DNA of 64,000 bases from Rugalucina vietnamica (taxonomy: Eukaryota > Mollusca > Bivalvia > Lucinida > Lucinidae), in assembly GCA_964017185.1 (NCBI GenBank), contig OZ024871.1:60191226-60255225 (forward strand), in the 5' to 3' direction. The notes beneath the pieces are model-generated. The model saw only the letters and a list, made by a program, of their open reading frames with translations, had not been told where the DNA came from and searched no databases. Positions 4,178 to 53,636 of this stretch are shown piece by piece (the stretch's first letter is position 1; every line of letters starts with the position of its first letter). The translations under genes and the position numbers were made by a program.

Positions 4178-4184
4178 AACATTT

Positions 4185-7402: not shown

Positions 7403-7489
7403 TTCGAATGTCCGTTTGAATAATTTAGACACAAATGAGTTGTTAATTTACCGGGTTATCGCGTCGGATTCGAAGTAAAACTAACAGGT

Positions 7490-7514
7490 AATATAAATAG
7501 GCTGAGTGACGTCA
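7490..7514 (-). promoter_or_regulatory. TATA-like box and CRE upstream of the P2X7-like gene
   Basis: On the minus strand, a full TGACGTCA (7507-7514) is followed within about 8 bases by CTATTTATAT (7491-7500). The P2X7-like ATG lies about 90 bases further downstream at 7402, leaving room for a start site near 7460-7465 and a short leader. The arrangement supports a real promoter for the minus-strand gene. Confidence 0.45.
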
Positions 7515-9298
7515 CACACACAGGTGTCATGGCCGCTTACACGCTTGGCTGGAAAAGGCGATTACTCGATTTTTAAATCGTTAAAACTCGGCATCTGTAA
7601 GGGCTACCTGCACGAAATTTTCCAAATGTATTAAGTATTGTCTATATTTATAGCACATACCACGGGAAGCCCTACATTGCGGTCCCCTTTAAAGCTAAGC
7701 GTTGCAGTTGCAAACGTAAGTGTCAACATGTAAGCATTAACCGTTGCAGTTGCAACCTTTAAAGGCAACACGTTAACATTTAGCATTGCAGTTGCAAGCG
7801 TTAGTGGCAACACGTTAAAACTAAGCGTTGCAGTTACAACCGTTAGTGTCAACATTATAACAGTAAGTGTAGCATTTGCTTACGTTAATTTCAACACGTT
7901 AACACGTTGCAACCGTTTATGGCAACATGTTAACACTTAGCATTGCAGTTGCAACCGTTAGTGTCAACATGTTTACACCAAGCGTTGCAGTTGCAACCGT
8001 TAATGACAACACGTTAACACTAAGCATTGCGGTTACAATGCGTTAAAACTAAGCGTTGTAGTTAAAACCGTTAATGACAACACGTAAACACTAAGCTTTG
8101 CATTTGCAACCATTAAAACCATGTCAACACGTTAAAACTAAGCGTTGTAGTTACATGTATAACCGTTAATTGCAACACGTTAGCACTAAGCATTGGATTT
8201 GCAACCGTTAATACCGTGGCAACACGTTAAAACTAAGCGTTGCAGTTAAAACCGTTAATGACAACACGTAAACACTAAGCTGCATTTGCAACCATTAAAA
8301 CCATGTCAACACGTTAAAACTAAGCGTTGTAGTTATAACCGTTAATTGCAACACGTTAGCACTAAGCATTGGATTTGCAACCGTTAATACCGTGGCAACA
8401 TGTTAAAACTAAGCGTTGCAGTTAAAACCGTTAATGTCAACACGTAAACACTAAGCTTTGCATTTGCAACCGTTAAAACTGTGTCAACACGTTAAAACTA
8501 AGCGTTGTATTTAAAACCGTTAATGGCAACACGTAAACACTAAGCTTTGCATTTGCAACCGTTAAAACAGTTGCAAACGTTAGTGTCAACATGTAAGCAC
8601 TAACCGTTACAGTTGCAACCTTTAATGGCAACACGTTAACATTAAGCGTTAGTGGCAACACGTTAAAGGTAAGCGTTGCAGTTGCAAACGTCAGTGTCAA
8701 CATGTAAGCACTAACCGTTGCAGTTGCAACCTTTAAAGGCAACACGTTAACATTAAGCATTGCAGTTGCAAGCGTTAGTGGCAACACGTTAAAACTAAGC
8801 GTTGCAGTTACAACCGTTAGTGTCAACATTATAACAGTAAGTGTAGCATTTGCTTACGTTAATTTCAACACGTTAACACGTTGCAACCGTTTATGTCAAC
8901 ATGTTAACACTTAGCATTGCAGTTGCAACCGTTAGTGTCAACACGTTAACACTAAGCATTGCGGTTACAATGCGTTAAAACTAAGCGTTGTAGTTAAAAC
9001 CGTTAATGACAACACGTAAACACTAAGCTTTGCATTTGCAACCATCAAAACCATGTCAACACGTTAAAACTAAGCGTTGTAGTTATAACCACGTTAGCAC
9101 TAAGCATTGGATTTGCAACCGTTAATACCGTGGCAACACGTTAAAACTAAGCGTTGCAGTTAAAACCGTTAATGACAACACGTAAACGCTAAGCTTTGCA
9201 TTTGCAACCATTAAACCATGTCAACACGTTAAAGCTAAGCGTTGTAGTTATAACCGTTAATTGCAACACGTTAGCACTAAGCATTGGATTTGCAACCG

Positions 9299-10054
9299 TT
9301 AATACCGTGGCAACATGTTAAAACTAAGCGTTGCAGTTAAAACCGTTAATGACAACACGTAAACACTAAGCTTTGCATTTGCAACCGTTAAAACCAACAC
9401 GTTAAAACTAAGCGTTGTATTTAAAACCGTTAATGGCAACACGTAAACACTAAGCTTTGCATTTGCAACCGTTAAAACAGTTGCAAACGTTAGTGTCAAC
9501 ATGTAAGCACTAACCGTTACAATGCGTTAAAACTAAGCGTTGTAGTTAAAACCGTTAATGACAACACGTAAACACTAAGCTTTGCATTTGCAACCATCAA
9601 AACCATGTCAACACGTTAAAACTAAGCGTTGTAGTTATAACCACGTTAGCACTAAGCATTGGATTTGCAACCGTTAATACCGTGGCAACACGTTAAAACT
9701 AAGCGTTGCAGTTAAAACCGTTAATGACAACACGTAAACGCTAAGCTTTGCATTTGCAACCATTAAACCATGTCAACACGTTAAAGCTAAGCGTTGTAGT
9801 TATAACCGTTAATTGCAACACGTTAGCACTAAGCATTGGATTTGCAACCGTTAATACCGTGGCAACATGTTAAAACTAAGCGTTGCAGTTAAAACCGTTA
9901 ATGACAACACGTAAACACTAAGCTTTGCATTTGCAACCGTTAAAACCAACACGTTAAAACTAAGCGTTGTATTTAAAACCGTTAATGGCAACACGTAAAC
10001 ACTAAGCTTTGCATTTGCAACCGTTAAAACAGTTGCAAACGTTAGTGTCAACAT
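9299..10054. repeat. Recent 552-bp tandem duplication within the array
   Basis: Frames and their variant monomers at 9299-9502 recur unchanged at 9851-10054, and the intervening sequence matches, giving a 552-base period. Confidence 0.8.
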
Positions 10055-10733
10055 GTAAGCACTAACCGTTACAATGCGTTAAAACTAAGCGTTGTAGTTA
10101 AAACCGTTAATGACAACACGTAAACACTAAGCTTTGCATTTGCAACCATTAAAACCATGTCAACACGTTAAAACTAAGAGTTGTAGTTATAACCGTTAAT
10201 TGCAACACGTTAGCACTAAGCATTGGATTTGCAACCGTTAATACCGCGGCAACACGTTAAAACTAAGCGTTGCAGTTAAAACCGTTAATGACAACACGTA
10301 AACACTAATTTTTACATTTGCAACCATTAAAACCATGTCAACACGTTAAAACTAAGCGTTGTAGTTATAACCGTTAATTGCAACACGTTAGCACTAAGCG
10401 TTGGATTTGCAACCGTTAATACCGTGGCAACATGTTAAAACTAAGCGTTGCAGTTAAAACCGTTAATGACAACACGTAAACACTAAGCTTTGCATTTGCT
10501 ACCGTTAAAACCGTGTCAACACGTTAAAACTAAGCGTTGTAGTTAAAACCGTTAATGGCAACACGTAAACACTAAGCTTTGCATTTGCAACCGTTGAAAC
10601 AGTTGCAAACGTTAGTGTCAACATGTAAGCACTAACCCTTGCAGTTGTAACCTTTAAAGGCAACACGTTAACATTAAGCATTGCAGTTGCAAGCGTTAGT
10701 GGCAACACGCTAAAACTAAGCGTTGCAGTTACA

Positions 10734-10744
10734 ACCGTTAGTGT

Positions 10745-10789
<45 letters not shown>

Positions 10790-11172
10790 GTTAATTACAA
10801 CACGTTTACACTAAGCATTGCGGTTACAATGCGTTAAAACTAAGCGTTGTAGTAAAAACCATTAATGACAACACGTAAACACTAAGCTTTGCATTTGCAA
10901 CCATTAAAACCATGTCAACACGTTAAAACTAAGCGTTGTAGTTATAACCGTTAATTGCAACACGTTAGCACTAAGCATTGGATTTGCAACCGTTAATACC
11001 GTGGCAACACGGTAAAACTAAGCGTTGCAGTTAAAACAGTTAATGACAACACGTAAACACTAAGCTTTGCATTTGCAACCATTAAAACCATGTCAACACG
11101 TTAAAACTAAGCGTTGTAGTTATAACCGTTAATTGCAACACGTTAGCAATAAGCATTGGATTTGCAACCGTT
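10734..11172. repeat. Type example of the 178-bp tetramer higher-order repeat
   Basis: The landmark CATGTCAACACG recurs at 10911 and 11089, exactly 178 bases apart. Between them lie four monomers of 42, 47, 42 and 47 bases: a TAGTTATAACC type, a TTGGATTTGC type ending in TACCGTGG, an AGTTAAAACC type, and a GCTTTGCATTTGC type ending in ACCATGT. The same tetramer, with occasional deletions, recurs throughout the array between the open-frame blocks. Confidence 0.8.
10746..10787 (+). repeat. Poly-A tract (42 A) inside the array
   Basis: A pure A run replaces most of one monomer between AGTGTC and ACCGTTAATTAC. Confidence 0.95.
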
Positions 11173-12476
11173 AATACCGTGGCAACACGTTAAAACTAAG
11201 CGTTGCAGTTAAAACCGTTAATGACAACACGTAAACACTAAGCTTTGCATTTGCAACCGTTAAAACAGTTGCAAACGTTAGTGTCAACATGTAAGCACTA
11301 ACCGTTACAGTTGCAACCTTTAATGGCAACACGTTAACATTAAGCGTTAGTGGCAACACGTTAAAGCTAAGCGTTGCAGTTGCAAACTTTAGTGTCAACA
11401 TGTAAGCACTAACCGTTGCAGTTGCGACCTTTAAAGGCAACACGTTAACATTAAGCATTGCAGTTGCAAGCGTTAGTGGCAACACGTTGCAGTTACAACC
11501 GTTAGTGTCAACATTACAGTAAGTGTAGCATTTGCTTACGTTAATTTCTACACGTTAACACGTTGCAACTGTTTATGTCAACATGTTAACACTTAGCATT
11601 GCAGTTGCAACCGTTAGTGTCAACATGTTTACACTAAGCGTTGCAGTTGCAACCGTTAATGACAACACGTTAACACTAAGCATTGCGGTTACAATGCGTT
11701 AAAACTAAGCGTTGTAGTTAAAACCGTTAATGACAACACGTAAACACTAAGCTTTGCATTTGCAACCATTAAAACCATGTCAACACGTTAAAACTAAGCG
11801 TTGTAGTTATAACCGTTAATTGCAACACGTTAGCACTAAGCATTGGATTTGCAACCGTTAATACCGCGGCAACACGTTAAAACTAAGCGTTGCAGTTAAA
11901 ACCGTTAATGACAACACGTAAACACTAAGCTTTACATTTGCAACCATTAAAACCATGTCAACACGTTAAAACTAAGCGTTGTAGTTATAACCGTTAATTG
12001 CAACACGTTAGCACTAAGCATTGGATTTGCAACCGTTAATACCGTGGCAACATGTTAAAACTAAGCGTTGCAGTTAAAACCGTTAATGACAACACGTAAA
12101 CACTAGGCTTTGCATTTGCAACCGTTAAAACCGTGTCAACACGTTAAAACTAAGCGTTGTAGTTAGAACCGTTAATGGCAACACGTAAACACTACGCTTT
12201 GCATTTGCAACCGTTAAAACAGTTGCAAACGTTAGTGTCAACATGTAAGCACTAACCGTTACAGTTGCAACCTTTAATGGCAAGACGTTAACATTAAGCG
12301 ATAGTGGCAAAACGTTAAAGCTAAGCGTTGCAGTTGCAAACGTTAGTGTCAACATGTAAGCACTAACCCTTGCAGTTGTAACCTTTAAAGGCAACACGTT
12401 AACATTAAGCATTGCAGTTGCAAGCGTTAGTGGCAACACGTTAAAACTAAGCGTTGCAGTTACAACCGTTAGTGTC

Positions 12477-12517
12477 AAAAAAAAAACAAAACAAAAAAAA
12501 AACAAAACAAAAAAAAA
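12477..12517 (+). repeat. A-rich tract with scattered C, homologous site
   Basis: 41 bases of A with four interspersed C residues, at the same monomer position as the tract at 10746. Confidence 0.9.
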
Positions 12518-14253
12518 CGTTACTTACAACACGTTAACACTAAGCATTGTGGTTACAATGCGTTAAAACTAAGCGTTGTAGTTAAAACCATTAATGACAA
12601 CACGTAAACACTAAGCTTTGCATTTGCAACCATTAAGTGTCAACATTATAACAGTAAATGTAGCATTTGCTTACGTTAATTTCAACACGTTAACACGTTG
12701 CAACCGTTTATGTCAACATGTAAGCACTAACCGTTGCAGTTGCAACCTTTAAAGGCAACACGTTAACATTAAGCATTGCAGTTGCAAGCGTTAGTGGCAA
12801 CACGTTAAAACTAAGCGTTGCAGTTACAACCGTTAGTGTCAACATTATAACAGTAAGTGTAGCATTTGCTTACGTTAATTTCAACACGTTAACACGTTGC
12901 AACCGTTTATGGCAACATGTTAACACTTAGCATTGCAGTTGCAACCGTTAGTGTCAACATGTTTACACTAAGCGTTGCAGTTGCAACCGTTCATGACAAC
13001 ACGTTAACACTAAGCATTGCGGTTACAATGCGTTAAATCTAAGCGTTGTAGTAAAAACCGTTAATGAGAACACGTAAACACTAAGCTTTGCATTTGCAAC
13101 CGTTAATACCGTGGCAACACGGTAAAACTAAGCGTTGCAATTAAAACCGTTAATGACAACACGTAAACACTAAGCTTTGCATTTGCAACCATAAAAACCA
13201 TGTCAACACGTTAAAACTAAGCGTTGTAGTTATAACCGTTAATTACAACACGTTAGCACTAAGCATTGGATTTGCAACCGTTAATACCGTGGCAACACGT
13301 TAAAACTAAGCGTTGCAGTTTCAACCGTTAATGACAACACGTAAACACTAAGCTTTGCATTTGCAACCATTAAAAACCATGTCAACACGTTAAAACTAAC
13401 CGTTAATTGCAACACGTTAGCACTAAGCATTGGATTTGCAACCGTTAATACCGTGGCAACATGTTAAAACTAAGCGTTGCAGTTAAAACCGTTAATGACA
13501 ACACGTAAACACTAAGCTTTGCATTTGCAACCGTTAATACCGTGTCAACACGCTAAAACTAAGCGTTGTAGTTAAAACCGTTAATGGCAACACGTAAACA
13601 CTAAGCTTTGCATTTGCAACCGTTAAAACAGTTGCAAACGTTAGTGTCAACATGTAAGAACTTACCGTTACAGTTGCAACCTTTAATGGCAAGACGTTAA
13701 AATTGAGCGTTAGTGGCAACACGTTAAAGCTAAGCGTTGCAGTTGAAAACGTTAGTGTCAACATGTAAGCACTAACCGTTGCAGTTGCAACCTTTAAAGG
13801 CAACACGTTAACATTAAGCATTGCAGTTGCAAGCGTTGGTGGCAACACGTTAAAACTAAGCGTTGCAGTTACAATCGTTAGTGTCAACATTATAACAGTA
13901 AGTGTAGCATTTGCTTACGTTAATTTCAACACGTTAACACGTTGCAACCGTTTATGTCAACACTTAGCATTGCAGTTGCAACCGTTAGTGTCAACATGTT
14001 TACACTAAGCGTTGCAGTTGCAACCGTTAATGACAACACGTAAACACTAAGCTTTGCATTTGCAACCATTAAAACCATGTCAACACGTTAAAACTAAGCG
14101 TTGTAGTTATAACCGTTAATTGCAACACGTTAGCACTAAGCATTGGATTTGCAACCGTCAATACCGTGGCCACATGTTAAAACTAAGCGTTGCAGTTAAA
14201 ACCGTTAATGACAACAGACAACACGTAAACACTAAGCTTTGCATTTGCAACCA

Positions 14254-16311
14254 TTAAAACCGTGTCAACACGTTAAAACTAAGCGTTGTAGTTAAAACCG
14301 ATAATGGCAACACGTAAACACTAAGCTTTGCATTTGCAACCGTTAAAACAGTTGCAAACGTTAGTGTCAACATGTAAGCACTAACCGTTACAGTTGCAAC
14401 CTTTAATGACAAGACGTTAACATGGAGGGTTAGTGGCAACACGTTAAAGCTAAGCGTTGCAGTTGCAAACGTTAGTGTCAACATGTAAGCATTAACCGTT
14501 GCAGTTGCAACCTTTAAAGGCAACACGTTAACATTAAGCATTGCTGTTGCAAGCGTTAGTGGCAACACGTTAAAACTAAGCGTTGCAGTTACAACCGTTA
14601 ATGACAACACGTTAACACTAAGCATTGCGGTTACAATGCGTTAAAACTAAGCGTTGTGTAGTTTAAACCGTTTATGACAACACGTAAACACTAAGCTTTG
14701 CATTTGCAACCATTAAAACCATGCCAACACATTAATACTAAGCGTTGTAGTTATAACCGTCAATTGCAACACGTTAGCACTAAGCATTGGATTTGCAACC
14801 GTTAATACCGTGGCAACACGTTAAAACTAAGCGTTGTAGTTATAACCGTTAATTGCAACACGTTAGCACTAAGCATTGGATTTGCAACCGTCAATACCGT
14901 GGCCACATGTTAAAACTAAGCGTTGCAGTTAAAACCGTTAATGACAACAGACAACACGTAAACACTAAGCTTTGCATTTGCAACCATTAAAACCGTGTCA
15001 ACACGTTAAAACTAAGCGTTGTAGTTAAAACCGTTAATGGCAACACGTAAACACTAAGCTTTGCATTTGCAACCGTTAAAACAGTTGCAAACGTTAGTGT
15101 CAACATGTAAGCACTAACCGTTACAGTTGCAACCTTTAATGACAACACGTTAACATGGAGGGTTAGTGGCAACACGTTAAAGCTAAGCGTTGCAGTTGCA
15201 AACGTTAGTGTCAACATGTAAGCATTAACCGTTGCAGTTGCAACCTTTAAAGGCAACACGTTAACATTAAGCATTGCTGTTGCAAGCGTTAGTGGCAACA
15301 CGTTAAAACTAAGCGTTGCAGTTACAACCGTTAATGACAACACGTTAACACTAAGCATTGCGGTTACAATGCGTTAAAACTAAGCGTTGCAATTACAACC
15401 TTTAGTGTCAACATTATTAGTGTAGCATTTGCTTACGTTAATTTCAACACGTTAACACGTTGCAACCGTTTATGGCAACATGTTAACACTTAGCATTGCA
15501 GTTGCAACCGTTTGTGTCAACATGTTTACACTAAGCGTTGCAGTTGCAACCGTTAATGACAACACGTTAACACTAAGCATTGCGGTTACAATGCGTTAAA
15601 ACTAAGCGTTGTAGTTTAAACCGTTTATGACAACACGTAAACACTAAGCTTTGCATTTGCAACCATTAAAACCATGCCAACACGTTAATACTAAGCGTTG
15701 TAGTTATAACCGTCAATTGCAACACGTTAGCACTAAGCATTGGATTTGCAACCGTTAATACCGTGGCAACACGTTAAAACTAAGCGTTGTAGTTATAACC
15801 GTTAATTGCAACACGTTAGCACTAAGCATTGGATTTGCAACCGTCAATACCGTGGCCACATGTTAAAACTAAGCGTTGCAGTTAAAACCGTTAATGACAA
15901 CAGACAACACGTAAACACTAAGCTTTGCATTTGCAACCATTAAAACCGTGTCAACACGTTAAAACTAAGCGTTGTAGTTAAAACCGTTAATGGCAACACG
16001 TAAACACTAAGCTTTGCATTTGCAACCGTTAAAACAGTTGCAAACGTTAGTGTCAACATGTAAGCACTAACCGTTACAGTTGCAACCTTTAATGACAACA
16101 CGTTAACATGGAGGGTTAGTGGCAACACGTTAAAGCTAAGCGTTGCAGTTGCAAACGTTAGTGTCAACATGTAAGCATTAACCGTTGCAGTTGCAACCTT
16201 TAAAGGCAACACGTTAACATTAAGCATTGCTGTTGCAAGCGTTAGTGGCAACACGTTAAAACTAAGCGTTGCAGTTACAACCGTTAATGACAACACGTTA
16301 ACACTAAGCAT
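14254..16311. repeat. Three near-identical copies spaced 733 and 953 bp
   Basis: A diagnostic ACATGGAGGGTTAGTGGC variant and a GACAACAGACAACACG junction appear in three consecutive copies whose matching minus-strand frames begin their stops at 14254, 14987 and 15940. The second interval is 220 bases longer because it carries extra AGTGTAGCATTTGC-type monomers. Confidence 0.8.
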
Positions 16312-16783
16312 TGCGGTTACAATGCGTTAAAACTAAGCGTTGCAATTACAACCTTTAGTGTCAACATTATTAGTGTAGCATTTGCTTACGTTAATTTCAA
16401 CACGTTAACACGTTGCAACCGTTTATGTCAACATGTTAACACTTAGCATTGCAGTTGCAACCGTTTGTGTCAACATGTTTACACTAAGCGTTGCAGTTGC
16501 AACCGTTAATGACAACACGTTAACACTAAGCATTGCGGTTACAATGCGTTAAAACTAAGCGTTGTAGTTTAAACCGTTTATGACAACACGTAAGCTTTGC
16601 ATTTGCAACCATTAAAACCATGCCAACACGTTAATACTAAGCGTTGTAGTTATAACCGTCAATTGCAACACGTTAGCACTAAGCATTGGATTTGCAACCG
16701 TTAATACCGTGGCAACACGTTAAAACTAAGCGTTGCAGTTAAAACCGTTAATGACAACACGTAAACACTAAGCTTTGCATTTG

Positions 16784-19700
16784 CAACCATTAAAACCAAG
16801 TCAACACGTTAAAACTAAGCGTTGTAGTTATAACCGTTAATTGCAACACGTTAGCACAAAGCATTGGATTTGCAACCGTTAATACCCTGGCAACACGGTA
16901 AAACTAAGCGAAGCAGTTAAAACCGTTAATGACAACACGTAAACACTAAGCTTTGCATTTGCAACCATTAAAACCATGTCAACACGTTAAAACTAAGCGT
17001 TGTAGTTATAACCGTTAATTACAACACGTTAGCACTAAGCATTGGATTTGCAACCGTTAATACCGTGGCAACATGTTAAAACTAAGCGTTGCAGTTAAAA
17101 CCGTTAATGACAACACGTAAACAATAAGCTTTGCATTTGCAACCATTAAAACCATGTCAACACGTTAAAACTAACCGTTAATTGCAACACGTTAGCACTA
17201 AGCATTGGATTTGCAACCGTTAATACCGTGGCAACATGTTAAAACTAAGCGTTGCAGTTAAAACCGTTAATGACAACAGGTAAACACTAAGCTTTGCATT
17301 TGCATCCGTTAAAACCGTGTCAACACGCTAAAACTAAGCGTTGTAGTTAAAACCGTTAATGGCAACACGTAAATATTAAGCTTTGCATTTGCAACTGTTA
17401 AAACAGTTGCAAACGTTAGTGTCAACATGTAAGAACTTACCGTTACATGTAAGAACTTACCGTTACAGTTGCAACCTTTAATGGCAAGACGTTAACATTA
17501 AGCGTTAGTGGCAACACGTTAAAGCTAAGCGTTGCAGTTGAAAACGTTAGTGTCAACATGTAAGCACTAACCGTTGCAGTTGCAACCTTTAAAGGCAACA
17601 CGTTAACATTAAGCATTGCAGTTGCAAGCGTTGGTGGCAACACGTTAAAACTAAGCGTTGCAGTTACAATCGTTAAAATGACAAGACGTTAACATGGAGG
17701 GTTAGTGGCAACACGTTAAAGCTAAGCGTTGCAGTTGCAAACGTTAGTGTCAACATGTAAGCACTTACCGTTGCAGTTGCAACCTTTAAAGGCAACACGT
17801 TAACATTAAGCATTGCTGTTGCAAGCGTTAGAGGCAACACGTTAATGACAACACGTTAACACTAAGCATTGCGGTAACAATGCGTTAAAACTAAGCGTTG
17901 CAGTTACAACCTTTAGTGTCATATTATTAGTGTAGCATTTGCTTACGTTACGTTAGTGTCAACATTATAAGTGTAGCATTTGCTTACGTTAATTTCAACA
18001 CGTTAACGCGTTGCAACCGTTTATGTCAACATGTTAACACTTAGCATTGCAGTTGCAACCGTTAGTGTCAACATGTTTACACTAAGCGTTGCAGTTGCAA
18101 CCGTTAATGACAACACGTTAACACTAAGCATTGCGGTTACAATGCGTTAAAACTAAGCGTCGCAGTTACAACCGTTAGTGTCAACATTATAACAGTAAGT
18201 GTAGCATTTGCTTACGTTAATTTCAACACGTTAACACGTTGCAACCGTTTATGTCAACACTTAGCATTGCAGTTGCAACCGTTAGTGTCAACATGTTTAC
18301 ACTAAGCGTTGCAGTTGCAACCGTTAATGACAACACGTAAACACTAAGCTTTGCATTTGCAACCATTAAAACCATGTCAACACGTTAAAACTAAGCGTTG
18401 TAGTTATAACCGTTAATTGCAACACGTTAGCACTAAGCATTGGATTTGCAACCGTTAATACCGTGGCAACATGTTAAAACTAAGCGTTGCAGTTAAAACC
18501 GTTAATGACAACACGTAAACACTAAGCTTTACATTTGCAACCATTAAAACCGTGTACGTTAAAACTAAGCGTTGTAGTTAAAACCGTTAACGGCAACACG
18601 TAAACACTAAGCTTTGCATTTGCAACCGTTAAAACAGTTGCAAACGTTACTGTCAACATTTAAGCACTAACCGTTACAGTTGCAACGTTTAATGGCAAGA
18701 CGATAACATTAAGCGTTAGTGGCAAAACGTAAAAGCTAAGCGTTGCAGTTGCAAACGTTAGTGTCAACATGTAAGCATTAACCGTTGCAGTTGCAACCTT
18801 TAAGGGCAACACGTTAACATTTAGCATTGCAGATGCAAGCGTTAGTGGCAACACGTTAAAACTAAGCGTTGCAATTATAACCGTTAGTGTCAACATTATA
18901 ACAGGAAGTGTAGCATTTGCTTACGTTAATTTCAACACGTTAACACGTTGCAACCGTTTATGTCAACATGTTAACACTTAGCATTGCAGTTGCAACCGTT
19001 AGTGTCAACATGTTTACACTAAGCGTTGCAGTTGCACCCGTTAATGACAACACGTAAACACTAAGCTTTGCATTTGCAACCATTAAAACCATGTCAACAC
19101 GTTAAAACTAAGCGTTGTAGTTATAACCGTAAATTGCAACACGTTAGCACTAAGCATTGGATTTGCAACCGTTAATACCGCGGCAACACGTTAAAACTAA
19201 GCGTTGCAGTTAAAACCGTTAATGACAACACGTAAACACTAAGCTTTGCATTTGCAACCGTTAAAACCGTGTCAACACGTTAAAACTAAGCGTTGTAGTT
19301 AAAACCGTTAATGGCAACACGTAAACACTAAGCTTTGCATTTGCAACCGTTAAAACAGTTGCAAATGTTAGTGTCAACACTTAGCATTGCAGTTGCAACC
19401 GTTAGTGTCAACATGTTTACACTAAGCGTTGCAGTTGCAACCGTTAATGACAATACGTAAACACTAAGCTTTGCATTTGCAACCGTTAAAACAGTTGCAA
19501 ACGTTAGTGTCAACACTTAGCATTGCAGTTGCAACCGTTAGTGTCAACATGTTTACACTAAGCGTTGCAGTTGCAACCATTAAGACCATGTCAACACGTT
19601 AAAACTAAGCGTTGTAGTTATAACCGTTAATTGCAACACGTTGGCACTAAGCATTGGATTTGCAAACGTTAAACCGTGGCAACATGTTAAAACTAAGCGT

Positions 19701-21120
19701 TGCAGTTAAAACCGTTAATGACAACACGTAAACACTAAGCTTTACATTTGCAACCATTAAAACCGTGTCAACACGTTAAAACTAACCGTTAATGGCAACA
19801 CGTAAACACTAAGTTTGCATTTGCAACCGTTAAAACAGTTGCAAACGTTAGTGTCAACATGTAAGCACTAACCATTACAGTTGCAACCTTTAATGGCAAC
19901 ACGTTAACATTAAGCGTTAGTGGCAACACGTTAAAGCTAAGCGTTGCAGTTGCAAACGTTAGTGTCAACATGTTAAAACTAACCGTTGCAGTTACAACCT
20001 TTAGTGTCAACATTATAACAGTAAGTGTAGCATTTGCTTACGTTAATTTCAACACGTTAACACGTTGCAACCGTTTATGTCAACATGTTAACACTTAGCA
20101 TTGCAGTTGCAACCGTTAGTGTCAACATGTTTACACTAAGCGTTGCAGTTGCAACCGTTAATGACAACTAGTTAACACTAAGCATTGCGGTTACAATGCG
20201 TTAAAACTAAGCGTTGTAGTTAAAACTGTTAATGACAACAAGTAAACACTTAGCTTTGCATTTGCAACCATTAAAACCATGTCAACACGTTAAAACTAAG
20301 CGTTGTAGTTATAACCGTTTATTGCAACACGTTAGCACTAAGCATTGGATTTTGCAACCGTTAATACCGTGGCAACACGTTAAAACTAAGCGTTGCAGTT
20401 AAAACCGTTAATGACAACACGTAAACACTAAACTTTGCATTTGCAACCATTACCATGTCAAGACGTTAAAACTAAGCGTTGTAGTTATAACCGTTAATTG
20501 CAACACGTTAGCACTAAGCATTGGATTTGCAACCGTTAATACCGTGGCAACATGTTAAAACTAAGCGTTGCAGTTAAAACCGTTAATGACAACACGTAAA
20601 CACTAAGCTTTCCATTTGCAACCGTTAAAACCGTGTCAACACGTTAAAACTAAGCGTTGTAGTTAAAACCATTAATGGCAACACGTAAACACTAAGCTTT
20701 GCATTTGCAACCGTTAAAACAGTTGCAAACGTTAGTGTCAACATGTAAGCACTAACCATTACAGTTGCAACCTTTAATGGCAACACGTTAACATTAAGCG
20801 TTAGTGGCAACACGTTAAAGCTAAGCGTTGCAGTTGCAAACGTTAGTGTCAACATGTTAAAACTAACCGTTGCAGTTGCGACCTTTAAAGGCAACACGTT
20901 AACATTAAGCATTGCAGTTGCAAGCGTTAGTGGCAACACGTTAAAACTAAGCGTTGCAGTTACAACCGTTAGTGTCAACATTATAACAGTAAGTGTAGCA
21001 TTTGCTTACGTTAATTTCAACACGTTAACACGTTGCAACCGTTTATGTCAACATGTTAACACTTAGCATTGCAGTTGCAACCGTTAGTGTCAACATGTTT
21101 ACACTAAGCGTTGCAGTTGC
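16784..21120. repeat. Multi-kb block repeated at 31.45-36.06 kb and in part at 43.1-48.5 kb
   Basis: Rare variants recur in the same order. GCGAAGCAG is at 16908, 31631 and near 45697. CATGGAGGGTTAG near 17694 and 32399, the GTGTCATATTATTAG junction near 17918 and 32623, and CGTGTACGTT at 18551 and 33256 all share an offset of about 14,705 bases. CGTGTACGTT also recurs at 44886. The order of variant blocks is the same in all three copies, which shows segmental duplication and not independent mutation. Confidence 0.75.
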
Positions 21121-38966: not shown

Positions 38967-38984
38967 AAAAAAAAAAAAAAAAAA
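38959..38984 (+). repeat. A-rich tract, homologous site
   Basis: 26 bases, all A except one C, in the duplicated copy of the 10-12 kb block. Confidence 0.9.

Positions 38985-40846: not shown

Positions 40847-40850
<4 letters not shown>

Positions 40851-40882
<32 letters not shown>
40851..40882 (+). repeat. Poly-A tract (32 A), homologous site
   Basis: Pure A run after AGTGT, in the duplicated copy of the 12 kb block. Confidence 0.9.
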
Positions 40883-40883
<1 letters not shown>

Positions 40884-43800: not shown

Positions 43801-46800
43801 CTAAGCTTTGCATTTGCAACCATTAAAACCATGTCAACACGTTAAAACTAAGCGTTGTAGTTATAACCGTTAATTGCAACACGTTAGCACTAAGCATTGG
43901 ATTTGCAACCGTCAATACCGTGGCCACATGTTAAAACTAAGCGTTGCAGTTAAAACCGTTAATGACAACAGACAACACGTAAACACTAAGCTTTGCATTT
44001 GCAACCATTAAAACCGTGTCAATACGTTAAAACCAAGCGTTGTAGTTAAAACACGTAAACACTAAGCATTGCATTTGCAACCGTTAAAACAGTTGCAAAC
44101 GTTAGTGTCAACATGTAAGCACTTACCGTTGCAGTTGCAACCTTTAAAGCAAGCATTGCTGTTGCAAGCGTTACAGGCAACACGTTAAAACAAAGCGTTG
44201 CAGTTGCAACCGTTAATGACAACACGTTAAAACTAAGCATTGCGGTTACAATGCGTTAAAACTAAGCGTTGCAGTTACAACCTTTAGTGTCAACATTATT
44301 AGTGTAGCATTTGCTTACGTTACGTTAGTGTCAACATTATAAGTGTAGCATTTGCTTACGTTAATTTCAACACGTTAACGCGTTGCAACCGTTTATGTCA
44401 ACATGTTAACACTGAGCATTGCAGTTGCAACCGTTAGTGTCAACATGTTTACACTAAGCGTTGCAGTTGCAACCGTTAATGACAACACGTTAACACTAAG
44501 CATTGCGGTTACAATGCGTTAAAACTAAGCGTCGCAGTTACAACCGTTAGTGTCAACATTATAACAGTAAGTGTAGCATTTGCTTACGTTAATTTCAACT
44601 CGTTAACACGTTGCAACCGTTTATGTCAACACTTAGCATTGCAGTTGCAACCGTTAGTGTCAACATGTTTACACTAACGACAACACGTAAACACTAAGCT
44701 TTGCATTTGCAACCATTAAAACCATGTCAACACGTTAAAACTAAGCGTTAATTGCAACACGTTAGCACTAAGCATTGGATTTGCAACCGTTAATACCGTG
44801 GCAACATGTTAAAACTAAGCGTTGCAGTTAAAACCGTTAATGACAACACGTAAACACTAAGCTTTACATTTGCAACCATTAAAACCGTGTACGTTAAAAC
44901 TAAGCGTTGTAGTTAAAACCGTTAATGGCAACACGTAAACACTAAGCTTTGCATTTGCAACCGTTAAAACAGTTGCAAACGTTACTGTCAACATTTAAGC
45001 ACTAACCGTTACAGTTGCAACCTTTAATGGCAAGACGATAACATTAAGCGTTAGTGGCAAAACGTTAAAGCTAAGCGTTGCAGTTGCAAACGTTAGTGTC
45101 AACATGTAAGCATTAACCGTTGCAGTTGCAACCTTTAAAGGCAACACGTTAACATTTAGCATTGCAGTTGCAAGCGTTAGTGGCAACACGTTAAAACTAA
45201 GCGTTGCAATTATAACCGTTAGTGTCAACAGGAATTGTAGCATTTGCTTACACGTTAACACGTTGCAACCGTTTATGTCAACATGTTAACACTTAGCATT
45301 GCAGTTGCAACCGTTAGTGTCAACATGTTTACACTAAGCGTTGCAGTTGCAACCGTTAATGACAACACGTAAACACTAAGCTTTGCATTTGCAACCATTA
45401 AAACCATGTCAACACGTTAAAACTAAGCGTTGTAGTTATAACCGTTAATTGCAACACGTTAGCACTAAGCATTGGATTTGCAACCGTTAATACCGTGGCC
45501 ACATGTTAAAACTAAGCGTTGCAGTTAAAACCGTTAATGACAACACGTAAACACTAAGCTTTGCATTTGCAACCATTAAAACCAAGTCAACACGTTAAAA
45601 CTAAGCGTTGTAGTTATAACCGTTAATTGCAACACGTTAGCACAAAGCATTGGATTTGCAACCGTTAATACCGTGGCAACACGGTAAAACTAAGCGAAGC
45701 AGTTAAAACCGTTAATGACAACACGTAAACACTAAGCTTTGCATTTGCAACCATTAAAACCATGTCAACACGTTAAAACTAAGCGTTGTAGTTATAACCG
45801 TTAATTGCAACACGTTAGCACTAAGCATTCGATTTGCAACCGTTAATACCGCGGCAACACGTTAAAACTAAGCGTTGCAGTTAAAACCGTTAATGACAAC
45901 ACGTAAACACTAAGCTTTGCATTTGCAACCATTAAAACCATGTCAACACGTTAAAACTAAGCGTTGTAATTATAACCGTTAACTGCAACACGTTAGAACT
46001 AAGCATTGGATTTGCAACCGTTAATACCGTGACAACATGTTAAAACTAAGCGTTGCAGTTAAAACCGTTAATGACAACACGTAAACACTAAGCTTTGCAT
46101 TTGCAACCGTTAAAACCGTGTCAACACGTTAAAACTAAGCGTTGTAGTTAAAACCGTTAATGGCAACACGTAAACACTAAGCTTTGCATTTGCAACCGTT
46201 AAAACAGTTGCAAACGTTAGTGTCAACACTAAGCATTGACACCGTTAGTGTCAACATGTTTACACTAAGCGTTGCAGTTGCAACCGTTAATGACAACACG
46301 TAAACACTAAGCTTTGCATTTGCAACCGTTAAAACAGTTGCAAACGTTAGTGTCAACACTTAGCATTGCAGTTGCAACCGTTAGTGTCAACATGTTTACA
46401 CTAAGCGTTGCAGTTGCAACCGTTAATGACAACACGTAAACACTTACCTTTGCATTTGCAACCATTAAAACCATGTCAACACGTTAAAACTAAGCGTTGT
46501 AGTTATAACCGTTAATTGCAACACGTTAGCACTAAGCATTGGATTTGCAACCGTTAATACCGTTGCAACATGTAAAAACTAAGCGTTGCAGTTAAAACCG
46601 TTAATGACAACACGTAAACACTAAGCTTTGCATTTGCAACCGTTAAAACAGTTGCAAACGTTACTGTCAACATGTAAGCACTAACCGTTACAGTTGCAAC
46701 CTTTAATGGCAAGACGTTAACATTAAGCAGTAGTGGCAACACGTTAAAGCTAAGCGTTGCAGTTGCAAACGTTAGTGTCAACATGTAAGCATTAACCGTT

Positions 46801-49203
46801 GCAGTTGCAACCTTTATAGGCAACACGTTAACATTAAGCATTGCAGTTGCAAGCGTTAGTGGCAACACGTTAAAACTAAGCGTTGCAGTTAAAACCGTTA
46901 GTGTCAACATTACAGTAAGTGTAGCATTTGTTTACGTTTATTTCAACACGTTAACACTTTGCAACCGTATATCAACATGTTAACACTTAGCATTGCAGTT
47001 GCAACCGTTAGTGTCAACATGTTTACACTAAGCGTTGCAGTTGCAACCGTTAATGACAACACGTAAACACTAAGCTTTGCATTTGCAACCATTAAAACCA
47101 TGTCTACACGTTAAAACTAAGCGTTGTAGTTATAACCGTTAATTGCAACACGTTAGCACTAAGCATTGGATTTGCAACCGTTAAACCGTGGCAACATGTT
47201 AAAACTAAGCGTTGCAGTTAAAACCGTTAATGACAACACGTAAACACTAAGCTTTACATTTGCAACCATTAAAACCGTGTCAACACGTTAAAACTAAGCG
47301 TTGTAGTTAAAACCGTTAATGGCAACACGTAAACACTAAGCTTTGCATTTGCAACCGTTAAAACAGTTGCAAACGTTACTGTCAACATGTAAGCACTAAC
47401 CGTTACAGTTGCAACCTTTAATGGCAAGACGTTAACATTAAGCGTTAGTGGCAACACGTTAAAGCTAAGCGTTGCAGTTGCAAACGTTTGTGTCAACATG
47501 TAAGCATTAACCGTTGCAGTTGCAACCTTTAAAGGCAACACGTTAACATTAAGCATTGCAGTTGCAAGCGTTAGTGGCAACACGTTAAAACTAAGCGTTG
47601 CAGTTACAACCGTTAGTGTCATCATTACAGTAAGTGTAGCATTTGCTTACGTTAATTTCAACACGTTAACACGTTGCAACCGTTTATGTCAACATGTTAA
47701 CACTTAGCATTGCAGTTGCAACCGTATGTGTCAACATGTTTACACTAAGCGTTGCATTTGCTTACGTTAATTTCAACACGTTAACCGTTAATGACAACTA
47801 GTTAACACTAAGCATTGCGGTTACAATGCGTTAAAACTAAGCGTTGTAGTTAAAACTGTTAATGACAACAAGTAAACACTAAGCTTTGCATTTGCAACCA
47901 TTAAAACCATGTCAACACGTTAAAACTAAGCGTTGTAGTCATAACCGTTTATTGCAACACGTTAGCACTAAGCATTGGATTTGCAACCGTTAATACCGTG
48001 GCAACACGTTAAAACTAAGCGTTGCAGTTAAAACCGTTAATGACAACACGTAAACACTAAACTTTGCATTTGCAACCATTAAAACCTTGTCAACACGTTA
48101 AAACTAAGCGTTGTAGTTATAACCGATAATTGCAACACGTTAGCACTAAACATTGGATTTGCAACCGTTAAAATAGTTGCAAACGTTAGTGTCAACATGT
48201 AAGCACTAACCGTTACAGTTGCAACCTTTAATGGCAACACGTTAACATTAAGCGTTAGTGGCAACACGTTAAAGCTAAGCGTTGCAGTTGCAAACGTTAG
48301 TGTCAACATGTTAAAACTAACCGTTGCAGTTGCAACCTTTAAAGGCGTTAACATTAAGCATTGCAGTTGCAAGCGTTAGTGGCAACACGTTAAAACTAAG
48401 CGTTGCAGTTACAACCGTTAGTGTCAACATTATAACAGTAAGTGTAGCATTTGCTTACGTTAATTTCAACACGTTAACACGTTGCAACCGTTTATGTCAA
48501 CATGGTTACACTTAGCATTGCAGTTGCAACCGTTAGTGTCAACATGTTTACACTAAGCGTTGCAGTTGCAACCGTTAATGACAACACGTTAACGTTAACA
48601 CTAAGCATTGCGGTTACAATGCGTTAAAACTAAGCGTCGCAGTTACAACCGTTAGTAAATGTAGCATTTGCTTACGTTAATTTCAACACGTTGCAACCGT
48701 TTATGTCAAGCATTGCAGTTGCAACCGTTAGTGTCAACATGTTTACACTAAGCGTTGCAGTTGCAACCGTTAATGACAACACGTAAACACTAAGCTTTGC
48801 ATTTGCAACTATTAAAACCATGTCAACACGTTAAAACTAAGCGTTGTAGTTATAACCGTTAATTGCAACACATTAGCACTAAGCATTGGATTTGCAACCG
48901 TTAATACCGTGGCAACATGTTAAAACTAAGCGTTGCAGTTAAAACCGTTAATGACAACACGTAAACACTAAGCTTTACATTTGCAACCATTAAAACCGTG
49001 TCAACACGTGAAAACTAAGCGTTGTAGTTAAAACCGTTAATGGCAACACGTAAACACAAAGCTTTGCATTTGCAACCGTTAAAACAGTTGCAAACGTTAC
49101 TGTCAACATTTAAGCACTAACCGTTACAGTTGCAACCTTTAATTAGTTAGTGTCAACATTATAACAGGAAGTGTAGCATTTGCTTACGTTAATTTCAACA
49201 CGT

Positions 49204-50860
49204 TAACACGTTGCAACCGTTTATGTCAACATGTTAACACTTAGCATTGCAGTTGCAACCGTTAGTGTCAACATGTTTACACTAAGCGTTGCAGTTGCAA
49301 CCGTTAATGACAACACGTTAACACTAAGCATTGCGGTTACAATGCGTTAAAACTAAGCGTTGTAGTTAAAACCGTTAATGACAACACGTAAACACTAAGC
49401 TTTGCATTTGCAACCATTAAAACCATGTCAACACGTTAAAACTAAGCGTTGTAGTTATAACCGTTAATTGCAACACGTTAGCACTAAGCATTGGATTTGC
49501 AACCGTTAATACCGTGGCAACTAAGCGTTGCAGTTAAAACCGTTAATGACAACACGTAAACACTAAGCTTTGCATTTGCAACCGTTAAAACCGTGTCAAC
49601 ACGTTAAAACTAAGCGTTGTAGTTAAAACCGTTAATGGCAACACGTTATTACTTAGCTTTGAATTTGCAACCATTAAAACCGTGTCAACACGTTAAAACT
49701 AAGCGTTGTAGTTAAAACCGTTAATGGCAACACGTAAACACTAAGCTTTGCATTTGTTACCGTTAAAACATTTGCAAACGTTAGTGTCAACATGTAAGCA
49801 CTAACCGTTACAGTTGCAGCCTTTAATGGCAACACGTTAACATTAAGCGTTAGTGGCAACACGTTAAAGCTAAGCATTGCAGTTGCAAACGTTAGTGTCA
49901 ACATGTAAGCACTAACCGTTTCAGTTGCAACCTTTAAAGGCAACACGTTAACATTAAGCATTGCAGTTGCAAGCGTTAGTGGCAACACGTTAAAACTAAG
50001 CGTTGCAGTTACAACCGTTAGTGTCAACATTACAGTAAGTGTAGCATTTGCTTACGTTAATTTCAACACGTTAACACGTTGCAACCGTTTATGTCAACAT
50101 GTTAACACTAAGCGTTGCAGTTGCAACCGTTAATGACAACACGTTAACACTAAGCATTGCGGTTACAATGCGTTAAAACTAAGCGTTGTAGTTAAAACCG
50201 TTAATGACAACACGTAAACACTAAGCTTTGCATTTGCAACCATTAAAACCATGTCAACACGTTAAAACTAAGCGTTGTAGTTATAACCGTTAATTGCAAC
50301 ACGTTAGCACTAAGCATTGGATTTGCAACCGTTAATACCGTGGCAACTAAGCGTTGCAGTTAAAACCGTTAATGACAACACGTAAACACTAAGCTTTGCA
50401 TTTGCAACCGTTAAAACCGTGTCAACACGTTAAAACTAAGCGTTGTAGTTAAAACCGTTAATGGCAACACGTTATTACTTAGCTTTGAATTTGCAACCAT
50501 TAAAACCGTGTCAACACGTTAAAACTAAGCGTTGTAGTTAAAACCGTTAATGGCAACACGTAAACACTAAGCTTTGCATTTGTTACCGTTAAAACATTTG
50601 CAAACGTTAGTGTCAACATGTAAGCACTAACCGTTACAGTTGCAGCCTTTAATGGCAACACGTTAACATTAAGCGTTAGTGGCAACACGTTAAAGCTAAG
50701 CATTGCAGTTGCAAACGTTAGTGTCAACATGTAAGCACTAACCGTTTCAGTTGCAACCTTTAAAGGCAACACGTTAACATTAAGCATTGCAGTTGCAAGC
50801 GTTAGTGGCAACACGTTAAAACTAAGCGTTGCAGTTACAACCGTTAGTGTCAACATTACA
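49204..50860. repeat. 826-bp tandem duplication within the array
   Basis: The unusual junction ACACGTTATTACTTAGC occurs at 49641 and again at 50467, 826 bases on. The flanking 118-codon blocks (49674-50030 and 50500-50856) give the same translation. Confidence 0.85.
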
Positions 50861-51639
50861 GCAAGTGTAGCATTTGCTTACGTTAATTTCAACACGTTAA
50901 CACGTTGCAACCGTTTATGTCAACATGTTAACACTAAGTGTTGCAGTTGCAACCGTTAATACAACACGTTAACACTAAGCATTGCGGTTAGAATGCGTTA
51001 AATCTAAGCGTTGTAGTTAACACCGTTAATGACAACACGTAAACACTAAGCTTTGCATTTGCAACCATTAAAACTATGTCAACACGTTAAAACTAAGCGT
51101 TGTAGTTATAACCGTTAATTGCAACATTGCAGTTGCAACCGTTAGTGTCAACATGTTTACACTAAGTGTTGCAGTTGCAACCGTTAATACAACACGTAAA
51201 CACTAAGCATTGCGGTTACAATGCGTTAAAACTAAGCGTTGTAGTTAAAACCGTTAATGACAACACGTAAACACTAAGCTTTGCATTTGCAACCATTAAA
51301 ACTATGTCAACACGTTAAAACTAAGCGTTGTAGTTATAACCGTTAATTGCAACACGTTAGCACTAAGCATTGGATTTGCAACCGTTAATACCGTGGCAAC
51401 ACGTTAAAACTAAGCGTTGCAGTTAAAACCGTTCATGACAACACGTAAACACTAAGCTTTGCATTTGCAACCATTAAAACCATGTCAACACGTTAAAACT
51501 AAGCGTTGTAGTTATAACCGTTAATTGCAACACGTTAGCACTAAGCATTGGATTTGCAACCGTTAATACCGTGGCAACACGTTAAAACTAAGCGTTGCAG
51601 TTAAAACCGTTAATGACAACACGTTTGCTTTGCATTTGC

Positions 51640-53636
51640 AACCGTCAACACGTTAAAACTAAGCGTTGTAGTTAAAACCGTTAATGGCAACATGTTAGCA
51701 CTAAGCACTGTAGTTGCAAATGATCGTGTCAACATTATATCACTAAGTTTTGCAGTTGCAACCGTTAGTGGCAACACGTTAAAACTAAGCGTTGCAGTTA
51801 CAACAGTTAGTGTCAACATTATAACACTACATGTAAGTGTAGCAGTTACATACGTTAACACGTTAACACGTTGAAGCCGTCAATGTCAACATGTTAAAAC
51901 TAAGCGTTAGTGTCAACATGTTAACACTAAGTGTTGCAGTTGCAACCATTAATGGCAACACGTTAACATTAAGCATTTCAGTTGCAACCGTTAGTGGCAA
52001 CACGTTAAAACTAAGCGTTGCAGTTACAACCGTTAGTGTCAACATGTTAGCATTAAGCTTTGCTGATAATATAACACTAAGCGTTGCAGTTGCAACCGTT
52101 AGTGTCAACATGTTAGCACTAAGCTTTGCTGTTGCAACCGTTAGTATAAACATGTTAACACTAAGCGTTGCAGTTGGAAAAATTAGTGTCAACATGTTAA
52201 CACAAAGCAATGCAGTTGCAACCATTAATGGCAACACGTTAAATCTAAGCGTTGCCCTTAGCGTCAACAAGCTAATACTTAGCGTTGCAGTTATAAACAC
52301 TAAACATTGCAGTTGCAACAGATTTTGTCAACATGTTAAACTATGCGTTAACACTAAGCGTTGCAGTTGCAACCGTTAGTGTCAACATTTTAACACTAAG
52401 AGTTGCAATTGCAACCCTTAGAGGCAACACGTTCAAACTAAATGATGTTAGTGTCAACACGCTTCAGTTGCAACCGTTAGTGTTAATATGTTAATCGTTG
52501 CATTTGCAACCATTAGTGTCAACATGTTAACACTAAACGTTGCAGTTGCAACCGTTAGTGGCAACAAGTTAACATCAAGTATTGCAGTTGCAACCGTTAG
52601 TAGCACCTTAAAACTCATTGTCAACATTATAACAATAAACGTTGCGGTTGCAATCGTTCGTGTCAACACGTTAAAACTATGCGTTGCAGGTACAACCGTT
52701 ATTGTCAACAATATAACACTAAGCGATGCAGTTCCAACCGTTAGTGTCAACATGTTAACACTTAGCGTTGCAGTGCAACCGTGAGTTAACCACTAAGCTT
52801 TGCTGTTGCAACCGTTAGTGTTGCAGTTGCAAAAGTTAGTGTCAGCATGTTAAAACTAAGCGTTGCAGTTACAACCCTTAGCGCCATACGTTAATACTAA
52901 GCATTGCAACCGTTAGTGTCAACATGTTAACATTAAGCGTTGCAGTTGCAGCCGTTAGTGTCAACATGTTAATAATATGCGTTGTAGTTACAACCGTTAG
53001 TTGCAACAGATTTTGTCAACATGTAAAACTATGCGTTGCAGTTACAACCGTTAGTGTCAACAATATAACACTAAGCGTTGCTGTTGCAACCGTTAGTGTC
53101 AACATTTTATCACTAAGCGTTGCAATTGCAACTGTTAGAGGCAACACGTTAAAACTAAGCGTTGCGGTTACAACCCTTAGCGTCAACAAGCTAATACTAA
53201 GCGCTGCAGTTATAAACACTAAACATTGCAGTTGCAACAGATTATGTCAACATGTAAAACTATGCGTTGCAGTTACAACCGTAAGTGTCAACAATATAAC
53301 ACTATGCGTTGCAGTTGCAACCGTTAATGTCAACATTTTAACACTAACGGTTCCAACTGCAAACTGCATTGCTTAGTATTATCATGATAACACGTTAACA
53401 CAAAGCATTGCAGTTACAACCGTTAGTGCCAACAAGTTAAAACTAACCGTTACAGTTACAACAGTTAGTGCCAAGAATATAACACTAAGCGTTGCTGTTG
53501 CAACCGTTCGTGTCAACGTGTTAACACTAAGCGTTGCAGTTGCAATCGATTGAGTAAACATGTTAACACTAAGCGTTGCAGTTGGAACCGGTAGTGGCAA
53601 CACGATAAAACTAAGCGTTGCAGTTACAACCGTTAC
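51640..53636. repeat. Degenerate right edge of the 42-bp array
   Basis: Monomers here lose the higher-order order. They carry many private substitutions and small indels, and are closer to a simple GTTAGTGTCAACATGTTAAC unit. Overlapping antiparallel frames of 162 codons (plus, 51891-52379) and 151 codons (minus, 51863-52318) are both open. The array stops after 53636. Confidence 0.8.

What the first reader, a model, noticed from the sequence alone, without database searches (positions are those of the whole stretch)
7688..53636. A 46-kb satellite with three nested levels of repeat order
Seen directly: 42-bp monomers, a 178-bp tetramer plus a second multi-monomer block, tandem periods of 552-953 bp, and multi-kb blocks repeated in order. 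Nested order of this kind is known from centromeric alpha-satellite, where local homogenisation produces it. I know of no described mollusc satellite with this monomer, but cannot search. A centromeric or other structural role is inference.
Basis: partly seen in the sequence, partly recalled or inferred. Interest (0 to 1): 0.85.

Follow-up and report, generated by a model that had tools for sequence, protein, structure and literature searches.

The report
Candidate centromere satellite with nested repeats
A 46-kb block of repeated DNA belongs to a repeat family found in one compact cluster on nearly every chromosome of this animal, which makes it a strong candidate for its centromere DNA, and its edges appear to have been copied between different chromosomes.

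Summary
It holds about 1,100 monomers (42-bp consensus) in one orientation. They form an 89-bp dimer, a 178-bp tetramer (ABDC), units of roughly 0.5-1.9 kb ([ABDC]n-ABA-MON-IFG-KHLE-J) and multi-kb copied blocks; the 42-mer itself looks like a trimer of 13-15-bp parts. Blocks keep their inner order, not their order relative to each other.

Searches of the whole assembly settle much of the rest. 17 contigs make up 99.85% of it. The family forms one cluster (span 0.3-0.8 Mb where measured) on 15 of the 17, plus two small outlying sites. Three rare variants could be listed in full: all 125 copies lie in one stretch of at most 0.5 Mb per contig, while a flanking transposon is scattered. Clusters hold higher-order arrays and simple 42-bp monomeric arrays. 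The right boundary recurs at the same base on eight chromosomes; a LINE junction beside it is present on five (C3, C4, C5, C8, C14) and absent on three (C2, C7, C13), so segments have been copied between non-homologous chromosomes.

Best reading: a centromeric satellite with genome-wide, not only local, exchange. No CENH3, FISH or methylation data exist here; 'mollusc' was not confirmed.

The parts
7688..53636 (+). Whole satellite array, about 1,100 monomers of the 42-bp family, one orientation
   Evidence: (0 minus-strand hits)
7688..51500 (+). Higher-order (HOR) part; 1,051 monomers counted, 36% distinct sequences, mean best-partner monomer identity 0.97 (first 150 monomers)
10841..11018 (+). 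Example of the 178-bp tetramer A-B-D-C (42+47+42+47)
21542..22469 (+). Example of a level-2 unit, ABDC-ABDC-ABA-MON-IFG-KHLE-J (928 bp)
9136..10239 (+). Local tandem duplication, period 552 (approximate limits)
14519..16788 (+). Local tandem duplication, period 953-955 (98.4% without gaps)
36982..38960 (+). Local tandem duplication, period 763 (98.4%)
49252..51126 (+). Local tandem duplication, period 826 (99.1%)
16483..21151 (+). Multi-kb block Y, in pieces; copy at 31,204-36,111 (offsets 14.7-15.0 kb)
10790..14656 (+). Multi-kb block X, in pieces; copy at 38,985-42,696 (offsets about 28.0-28.4 kb); X precedes Y, but Y' precedes X'
7864..9521 (+). Block W; copy at 21,359-23,010 (99.4%)
51700..53636 (+). 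Monomeric (non-HOR) right edge; 46 monomers, all distinct; 94-99% copies on C2, C3 (second copy), C4, C5 (two), C7, C13 and C14
53637..53746 (+). Shared boundary flank next to the array; same junction base read on seven chromosomes, C8 from search rows
53747..56556 (-). LINE segment (RVT_1, E 1.2e-29) starting about 108 bp beyond the array end (limits approximate); present there on C3, C4, C5, C8, C14, absent on C2, C7, C13
6923..7690 (.). Left junction, only its own place found; holds a P2RX7_C-like fragment at 7,040-7,447 (-)

Best explanation
This is one array of a centromeric satellite of this 17-chromosome genome. A simple 42-bp tandem repeat grew into nested higher-order units (89, 178, roughly 500-1,900 bp, multi-kb) by repeated unequal duplication; simple monomeric repeats remain at array and cluster edges. 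Arrays, edges and adjacent non-satellite DNA are also copied between the clusters of non-homologous chromosomes by ectopic exchange (gene conversion or break-induced replication), which keeps one repeat grammar genome-wide. Shown: the sequence hierarchy, one cluster per chromosome on 15 of 17, the two layers, and cross-chromosome sharing with a LINE junction present on some chromosomes and absent on others. Inferred: that the clusters are the centromeres, that some arrays carry CENH3, that the LINE junction arose once, and that ectopic recombination is the copying mechanism.
For: One cluster per contig on 15 of 17 chromosome-size contigs. Fully listed rare variants: 71 copies on nine contigs, 30 on six, 24 on seven, always in one stretch of at most 0.5 Mb per contig; reversed-pattern controls 0. 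Dispersion control: 39 other scored copies of a left-flank transposon lie on 14 contigs, none in a cluster (40 of 1,268 candidates scored); the LINE is scattered too. The same monomer grammar in 16 stretches of 7-10 kb on 15 contigs, C3 included. A common 26-mer has 4,689 exact copies, about 3.9 Mb of satellite by density (estimate). HOR against monomeric layers. Interchromosomal copying: 882 identical bases on C2 and C6; a ~1.95-kb monomeric flank at 99-100% on C2, C5, C14, C16, C17, 97% on C7, in pieces on C12; shared boundary with LINE junction on five chromosomes and without it on three. On C15 the array lies about 270 kb from a TTAGGG end and on C12 at 2.3-2.7 Mb, compatible with acrocentric chromosomes.
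Against: No hit was listed on C10 or C11, though lists were capped or limited to the best candidates. C15 rests on one pattern hit and one 7-kb sample. No CENH3, FISH, contact-map or methylation data. No CENP-B box, no excess of short dyads, no 10-bp periodicity. Satellite contigs may be misplaced in scaffolds. Two small family members lie far from their clusters (C12 13.93 Mb, C2 12.48 Mb). Clusters are interrupted by non-satellite DNA: of four further 10-kb samples the three that I placed between arrays on C1 and C3 hold none, the C14 one is satellite, so the kinetochore could sit on such DNA. The far side of the empty LINE site was not found in the copies with the LINE that I read (10-12 kb on C3, C4, C14), so a simple insertion is not proven. 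In Pacific oyster CENH3 ChIP is reported to show no centromere-specific repeat (passages of PMC8268682 and PMC7348941).
Confidence: 0.76

Rival explanations
1. Pericentromeric satellite: the family marks the neighbourhood of each centromere, but the kinetochore forms on other DNA in or next to the cluster.
For: Clusters are mosaics: samples at C1 60.37 Mb and C3 60.12 and 60.29 Mb hold no satellite. Oyster centromeres are reported without centromere-specific repeats (passage).
Against: HOR arrays with recently duplicated units are what active centromere arrays look like in primates (recalled). I did not look for any other candidate repeat.
Confidence: 0.17
2. Non-centromeric one-per-chromosome satellite (heterochromatic knob or pairing site).
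For: No functional data; no hit listed on C10 and C11; near-terminal on C12 and C15.
Against: One cluster on each of 15 of 17 contigs at varied, mostly internal positions is the usual pattern of monocentric centromeres (general knowledge).
Confidence: 0.05
3. Assembly artefact: collapsed or misjoined satellite contigs create the nested order or the cross-chromosome sharing.
For: Tandem repeats are hard to assemble; near-identical boundaries on several chromosomes could be misplaced contigs; reads were not available.
Against: Copies differ by markers: LINE junction present or absent, a 12-bp deletion seen only in the two C3 copies among nine sites read, 0.2-4% substitutions. No N in the 12 samples. 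A grammar shared by 16 samples cannot come from one misjoin.
Confidence: 0.05
4. Transposon-borne minisatellite, as in oyster Helitrons.
For: Tandem repeats inside mobile elements are common in C. gigas (passages of PMC8268682).
Against: None of 125 fully listed copies is dispersed; the left edge was found only at its own place.
Confidence: 0.02
5. Protein-coding 14-residue repeats (42 bp is 14 codons).
For: Recurrent open frames of about 126 aa.
Against: Longest open stretch 170 codons, within monomer shuffles (mean 153, maximum 217 of 30); 47-, 40- and 29-bp monomers shift the frame.
Confidence: 0.005

Closest known systems
Primate alpha satellite (features recalled)
   Same: Divergent monomers form higher-order units duplicated nearly identically; monomeric arrays beside HOR arrays; one main locus per chromosome.
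   Different: 42-bp monomer instead of about 171; no CENP-B box; several nested unit sizes with a variable tetramer count; one grammar on all 15 sampled contigs rather than chromosome-specific HORs; clusters of 0.3-0.8 Mb, with both orientations among listed hits on 12 of 15 contigs.
Meloidogyne satellites with complex HORs (PMC3694981; abstract and passages seen)
   Same: Invertebrate higher-order units made of several monomer types beside simple arrays.
   Different: There the units combine different satellites (32-64% identity), a CENP-B-box-like motif is present, and monomers shuffle between simple and HOR arrays.
Bivalve satellites: oyster Cg170/CgiSat01 and others (PMC8268682, PMC7348941, PMC11136912; passages seen); scallop Adamussium (PMC5874043; passages seen)
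   Same: Tandem repeats of marine invertebrates; Cg170 gives centromeric signals on several chromosomes; sub-repeats, and HOR formation from them, are discussed for molluscan satellites in PMC5874043; one C. ariakensis satellite (CarSat51) has a 42-bp monomer.
   Different: The oyster satellites are scattered and tied to Helitrons, without centromere specificity; the passages found mention no HOR in oysters. CarSat51 was matched by length only; its sequence was not compared.

Membership tests
Centromeric satellite of a monocentric genome | One major locus on every chromosome | tested here: inconclusive
   Seen on 15 of 17 chromosome-size contigs; none listed on C10 and C11, lists capped
Centromeric satellite of a monocentric genome | Long tandem arrays restricted to that locus | tested here: met
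   125 of 125 fully listed rare-variant copies in one stretch per contig; two small outlying sites found by DNA search
Centromeric satellite of a monocentric genome | CENH3 nucleosomes / primary constriction | not testable with these tools
   No chromatin or cytogenetic data
Higher-order repeat satellite | Diverged monomers in fixed order inside nearly identical multimeric units | tested here: met
   Adjacent monomers 0.67 identical, best partner 0.97; successor of a class largely determined, e.g. D to C 0.89, I to F 0.95
Alpha satellite | About 171-bp monomer with CENP-B box (recalled) | tested here: not met
   42-bp monomer; 0 CENP-B boxes in 46 kb
Alpha satellite | Chromosome-specific HORs (recalled) | tested here: not met
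   Same grammar on 15 sampled contigs; 60-mer sharing 0.37 within (11 pairs, 10 of them on C3, not independent) against 0.25 between chromosomes (125 pairs), label permutation p 0.0005: weak specificity only
Alpha satellite | Monomeric layers beside the HOR core (recalled) | tested here: met
Transposon-borne satellite (Helitron type) | Dispersed short arrays within element ends | tested here: not met

The most novel reading that the evidence does not exclude
Centromere clusters in this genome travel as cassettes: array ends together with non-satellite flanks are transferred between non-homologous chromosomes, so that centromere DNA evolves as one genome-wide pool, with inverted near-identical flanks helping the exchange and small outlying arrays (C12 13.93 Mb, C2 12.48 Mb) marking former sites. 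A LINE junction present on five chromosomes and absent on three marks one round of the transfer.
Probability: 0.45. Interest if true: 0.82.

Novelty: new variant of a known kind. Interest (0 to 1): 0.7.

Why it matters
The one bivalve centromere study whose passages I saw (Pacific oyster) reports no centromere-specific repeat. If the host is indeed a mollusc, a short-monomer, deeply nested satellite with one cluster per chromosome would be a contrast, and in any animal it would show alpha-satellite-like order arising from a 42-bp repeat. The LINE junction, present on some chromosomes and absent on others, offers a way to count and date exchange between non-homologous centromeres.

Tried and rejected
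Looked for a core 19-mer in the bacterial/archaeal and viral collections: 6 and 4 stretches with one match each, judged chance. Rfam at gathering scores: 0 matches. CENP-B box 0; short dyads 10.2 per kb in the first 20 kb against 11.0 in five shuffles; no 10-bp periodicity; no excess of open frames. Literature (open-licence PubMed Central only): the phrase 'cascading higher order repeat' (0 papers), the string GTTGCAACCGTTA (0 papers), and satellite, HOR and centromere searches with mollusc, bivalve, invertebrate, interchromosomal and Mya arenaria terms; in these listings and the passages seen I found no description of this monomer. Papers of which only the listing was seen are not cited as evidence. 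Passages of PMC12692304, PMC5139131, PMC12818792 and PMC10048060 added nothing used here. Molluscan haemocyanin domain PF14830 gave nothing in this genome, and nothing in the control genomes either, so it says nothing about taxon. A two-half (21+21) origin of the monomer was not supported (29 of 150 shuffles as good); a three-part origin was (0 of 150). CpG: transitions at 30 of 1,645 CpG sites against 59 of 13,709 other sites in 13 copy pairs that I chose; CpG observed/expected 1.41 in the array, 0.80-0.82 in the flanks: suggestive of germline methylation, not pursued. Four-gamete tests gave few positive pairs (22 of 370 in class A, 0-3 in each of the other eight classes), so gene conversion inside monomers is only weakly supported. 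The random-placement probability printed is circular (spans were defined by the hits) and is not used. C3b scores 0.716 because a ~1-kb local insertion misaligns it; it is left out of the identity ranges, and its junction letters agree. My first view of the right edge as a private decayed edge was wrong.
Full report
OBSERVATION. The array at 7,688-53,636 is real. Offsets of 42, 89 and 178 bp stand out. A cyclic alignment to a 42-bp consensus cuts it into about 1,100 monomers, of which 508 are 42 bp and 191 are 47 bp long; 426 of 1,099 are distinct. All copies run the same way (0 minus-strand hits). Clustering monomers at edit distance 4 or less gave 128 classes; the 28 classes with at least 4 members cover 970 of 1,100 monomers. 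Their order follows a grammar: tetramer A-B-D-C, 178 bp, in 40 runs of 1-4, then ABA, M-O-N, I-F-G, K-H-L-E and J, with many variants. A resembles D and B resembles C, so the tetramer looks like a doubled 89-bp dimer (sequences). The 42-mer itself splits best into three 13-15-bp parts (score 10; none of 150 shuffles as high).

Exact repeats of at least 100 bp cover 82% of the array, against 4% after monomer shuffling. Above the unit, local tandem duplications (552, 763, 826, 953 bp) sit beside multi-kb copies 13-28 kb apart. The order of whole blocks is not kept. Against 200 shuffles of 49 units, third-level order of monomer classes is reached by none for lengths 15, 20, 25 and 30, but the margin is small, and with exact monomers it is seen only at length 15. 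Of 182 neighbouring pairs of ~250-bp pieces, 62 share the best offset (random adjacency mean 0.4, maximum 3 in 200 trials); the best partner is under 2 kb away for 20% of 183 pieces and over 10 kb away for 60%. Both local and long-range copying act.

WHOLE GENOME. The window is C3:60,191,226-60,255,225 of a 1.09-Gb assembly in 47 contigs. C1-C17 sum to 1,088.2 Mb, 99.85% (lengths; sum); C18, C19, C20 and C47 are 15-86 kb. The satellite lies in one cluster per contig: C1 59.94-60.74, C2 48.41-49.12, C3 60.04-60.40, C4 24.35-24.88, C5 42.52-43.14, C6 34.62-34.95, C7 23.72-24.01, C8 44.35-44.94, C9 37.29-37.63, C12 2.31-2.67, C13 17.02-17.37, C14 38.44-38.76, C15 46.57, C16 22.33-22.87, C17 15.45-16.04 Mb. 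Spans are lower bounds and include non-satellite stretches; C15 is one pattern hit in a 7-kb sample that is 84% satellite. No hit was listed on C10 or C11, and their first and last 3 kb hold none; since DNA searches scored only 24-40 of 1,443-2,094 candidates and two pattern lists stopped at 100 places, this does not show absence. Three rare variants were listed in full: 71, 30 and 24 copies, on nine, six and seven contigs, each in one stretch of at most 0.5 Mb per contig. For two commoner patterns the first 100 of 4,689 and of 297 places were shown, also in the clusters. As a control, a transposon in the left flank has 39 other scored copies on 14 contigs, none in a cluster (40 of 1,268 candidates scored). 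From the 26-mer density the family is about 3.9 Mb, 0.4% of the genome (estimate).

Sixteen samples of 7-10 kb on 15 contigs show the same grammar (12; C14; C7 and C12; C15). Chromosome specificity is weak: shared 60-mers 0.37 within (11 pairs, 10 of them on C3) against 0.25 between (125 pairs), permutation p 0.0005; C2 and C6 share 882 identical bases. Of 99 monomer variants with five or more copies in nine classes, 92 occur on at least two of 12 chromosomes.

LAYERS AND BOUNDARIES. The last 2 kb of the array are monomeric: all 46 monomers distinct, no HOR. I first took this for a decayed private edge. It is not: 94-99% copies lie on C2, C3 (a second site), C4, C5 (two), C7, C13 and C14, with 84-86% copies on C8 and C12. 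A second monomeric block, at the left outer part of the C17 cluster, recurs at 99-100% on C2, C5 (two, inverted to each other), C14, C16 and C17 (a second, inverted), 97% on C7, in two pieces on C12, and 88% in part on C4. The right edge, this block and a lone 31-copy array on C12 at 13.93 Mb have the same consensus, TAAGCGTTGCAGTTGCAACCGTTAGTGTCAACATGTTAACAC, probably the ancestral monomer. Another small outlying match lies on C2 at 12.48 Mb.

The DNA just right of the array is also shared. About 108 bp from the array end a LINE (RVT_1) begins in the window, at a second C3 site, on C4, on C5 twice and on C14 (all read) and on C8 (search rows only). On C2, C7 and C13 the same flank continues without it. 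Copies with the LINE are 98.6-99.8% alike left of it, those without 97.7-98.7%, and the two groups 95.6-97.1% (C3b is misaligned there and left out). C4 and C14 agree at 99.0% over 5,023 bp. Most of the longer LINE copies scattered elsewhere start at query position 108-110, as expected for the end of the element. Against a plain insertion: the far side of the empty site was not found in the 10-12 kb read on C3, C4 and C14. Whether insertion or rearrangement, one shared junction followed by copying between non-homologous chromosomes is the simplest account. The left junction, 6,923-7,690, gave only its own place, apart from one 76-base partial match beside a transposon copy.

MECHANISM. Shown: hierarchy, clustering, layers and cross-chromosome copies. 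Inferred: unequal sister exchange makes the tandem levels; break-induced replication or gene conversion between clusters spreads edges. Inversion is common: both orientations occur among listed hits on 12 of 15 contigs, and on C5 near 42.562 Mb two arrays meet head to head with no other DNA between them. Centromere identity rests on position alone: one site per chromosome, internal on most, about 270 kb from a TTAGGG end on C15. CENH3 binding is not shown.

KNOWN KINDS. It works like alpha satellite (HOR arrays, monomeric flanks; recalled) but is not a member: monomer length and CENP-B box fail, and chromosome-specific HORs were not found. It is unlike the dispersed, Helitron-linked satellites of oysters (passages of PMC8268682). 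HOR formation from sub-repeats is discussed for molluscan satellites (passages of PMC5874043), and nematode HORs are another invertebrate parallel (abstract and passages of PMC3694981).

Noticed in passing
C12:13,928,854-13,930,151 (L062:1354-2652) and C2:12,475,857-12,478,426: Small arrays of the family 11 and 36 Mb away from their chromosome's cluster (the C12 one is a simple 42-bp array; the C2 one was seen only as search rows); possible relics of former centromere sites.
   Followed up: partly
L070 (C5:42,560,500-42,564,500), near position 1,300: Two arrays meet head to head with no other DNA between them; the two sides match in inverted order, at best 96.6% over 1,287 bp (not abutting), suggesting an inversion or fold-back junction.
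   Followed up: partly
10,746-10,787; 12,477-12,517; about 38,960 and 40,850: Poly-A-rich tracts replace part of a monomer in blocks copied about 28 kb apart; a useful marker of block duplication, origin unknown.
   Followed up: no
58,000-61,600: A second, degenerate minisatellite of about 41 bp, seen by eye (catcatctactggtccaatggttgttcctcttgtactctac-like), with strong AT skew.
   Followed up: no
61,700-63,100: Stretches built on ggacgtagtaaggacg and its complement, seen by eye; an inverted-repeat-like region.
   Followed up: no
4,175-4,932: Tandem repeats of about 147-170 bp, by eye inside a possible transposon with CGCACCTG-type ends.
   Followed up: no
1-1,512 (+): Open frame with a weak Pfam Mutator-like transposase match (E 6e-6, 25.8 bits against a cut-off of 26.5).
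   Followed up: partly
L069 (C15 end, 46,835,276-46,838,275): TTAGGG repeats (63 copies in 3 kb) at a contig end about 270 kb from the satellite array.
   Followed up: partly
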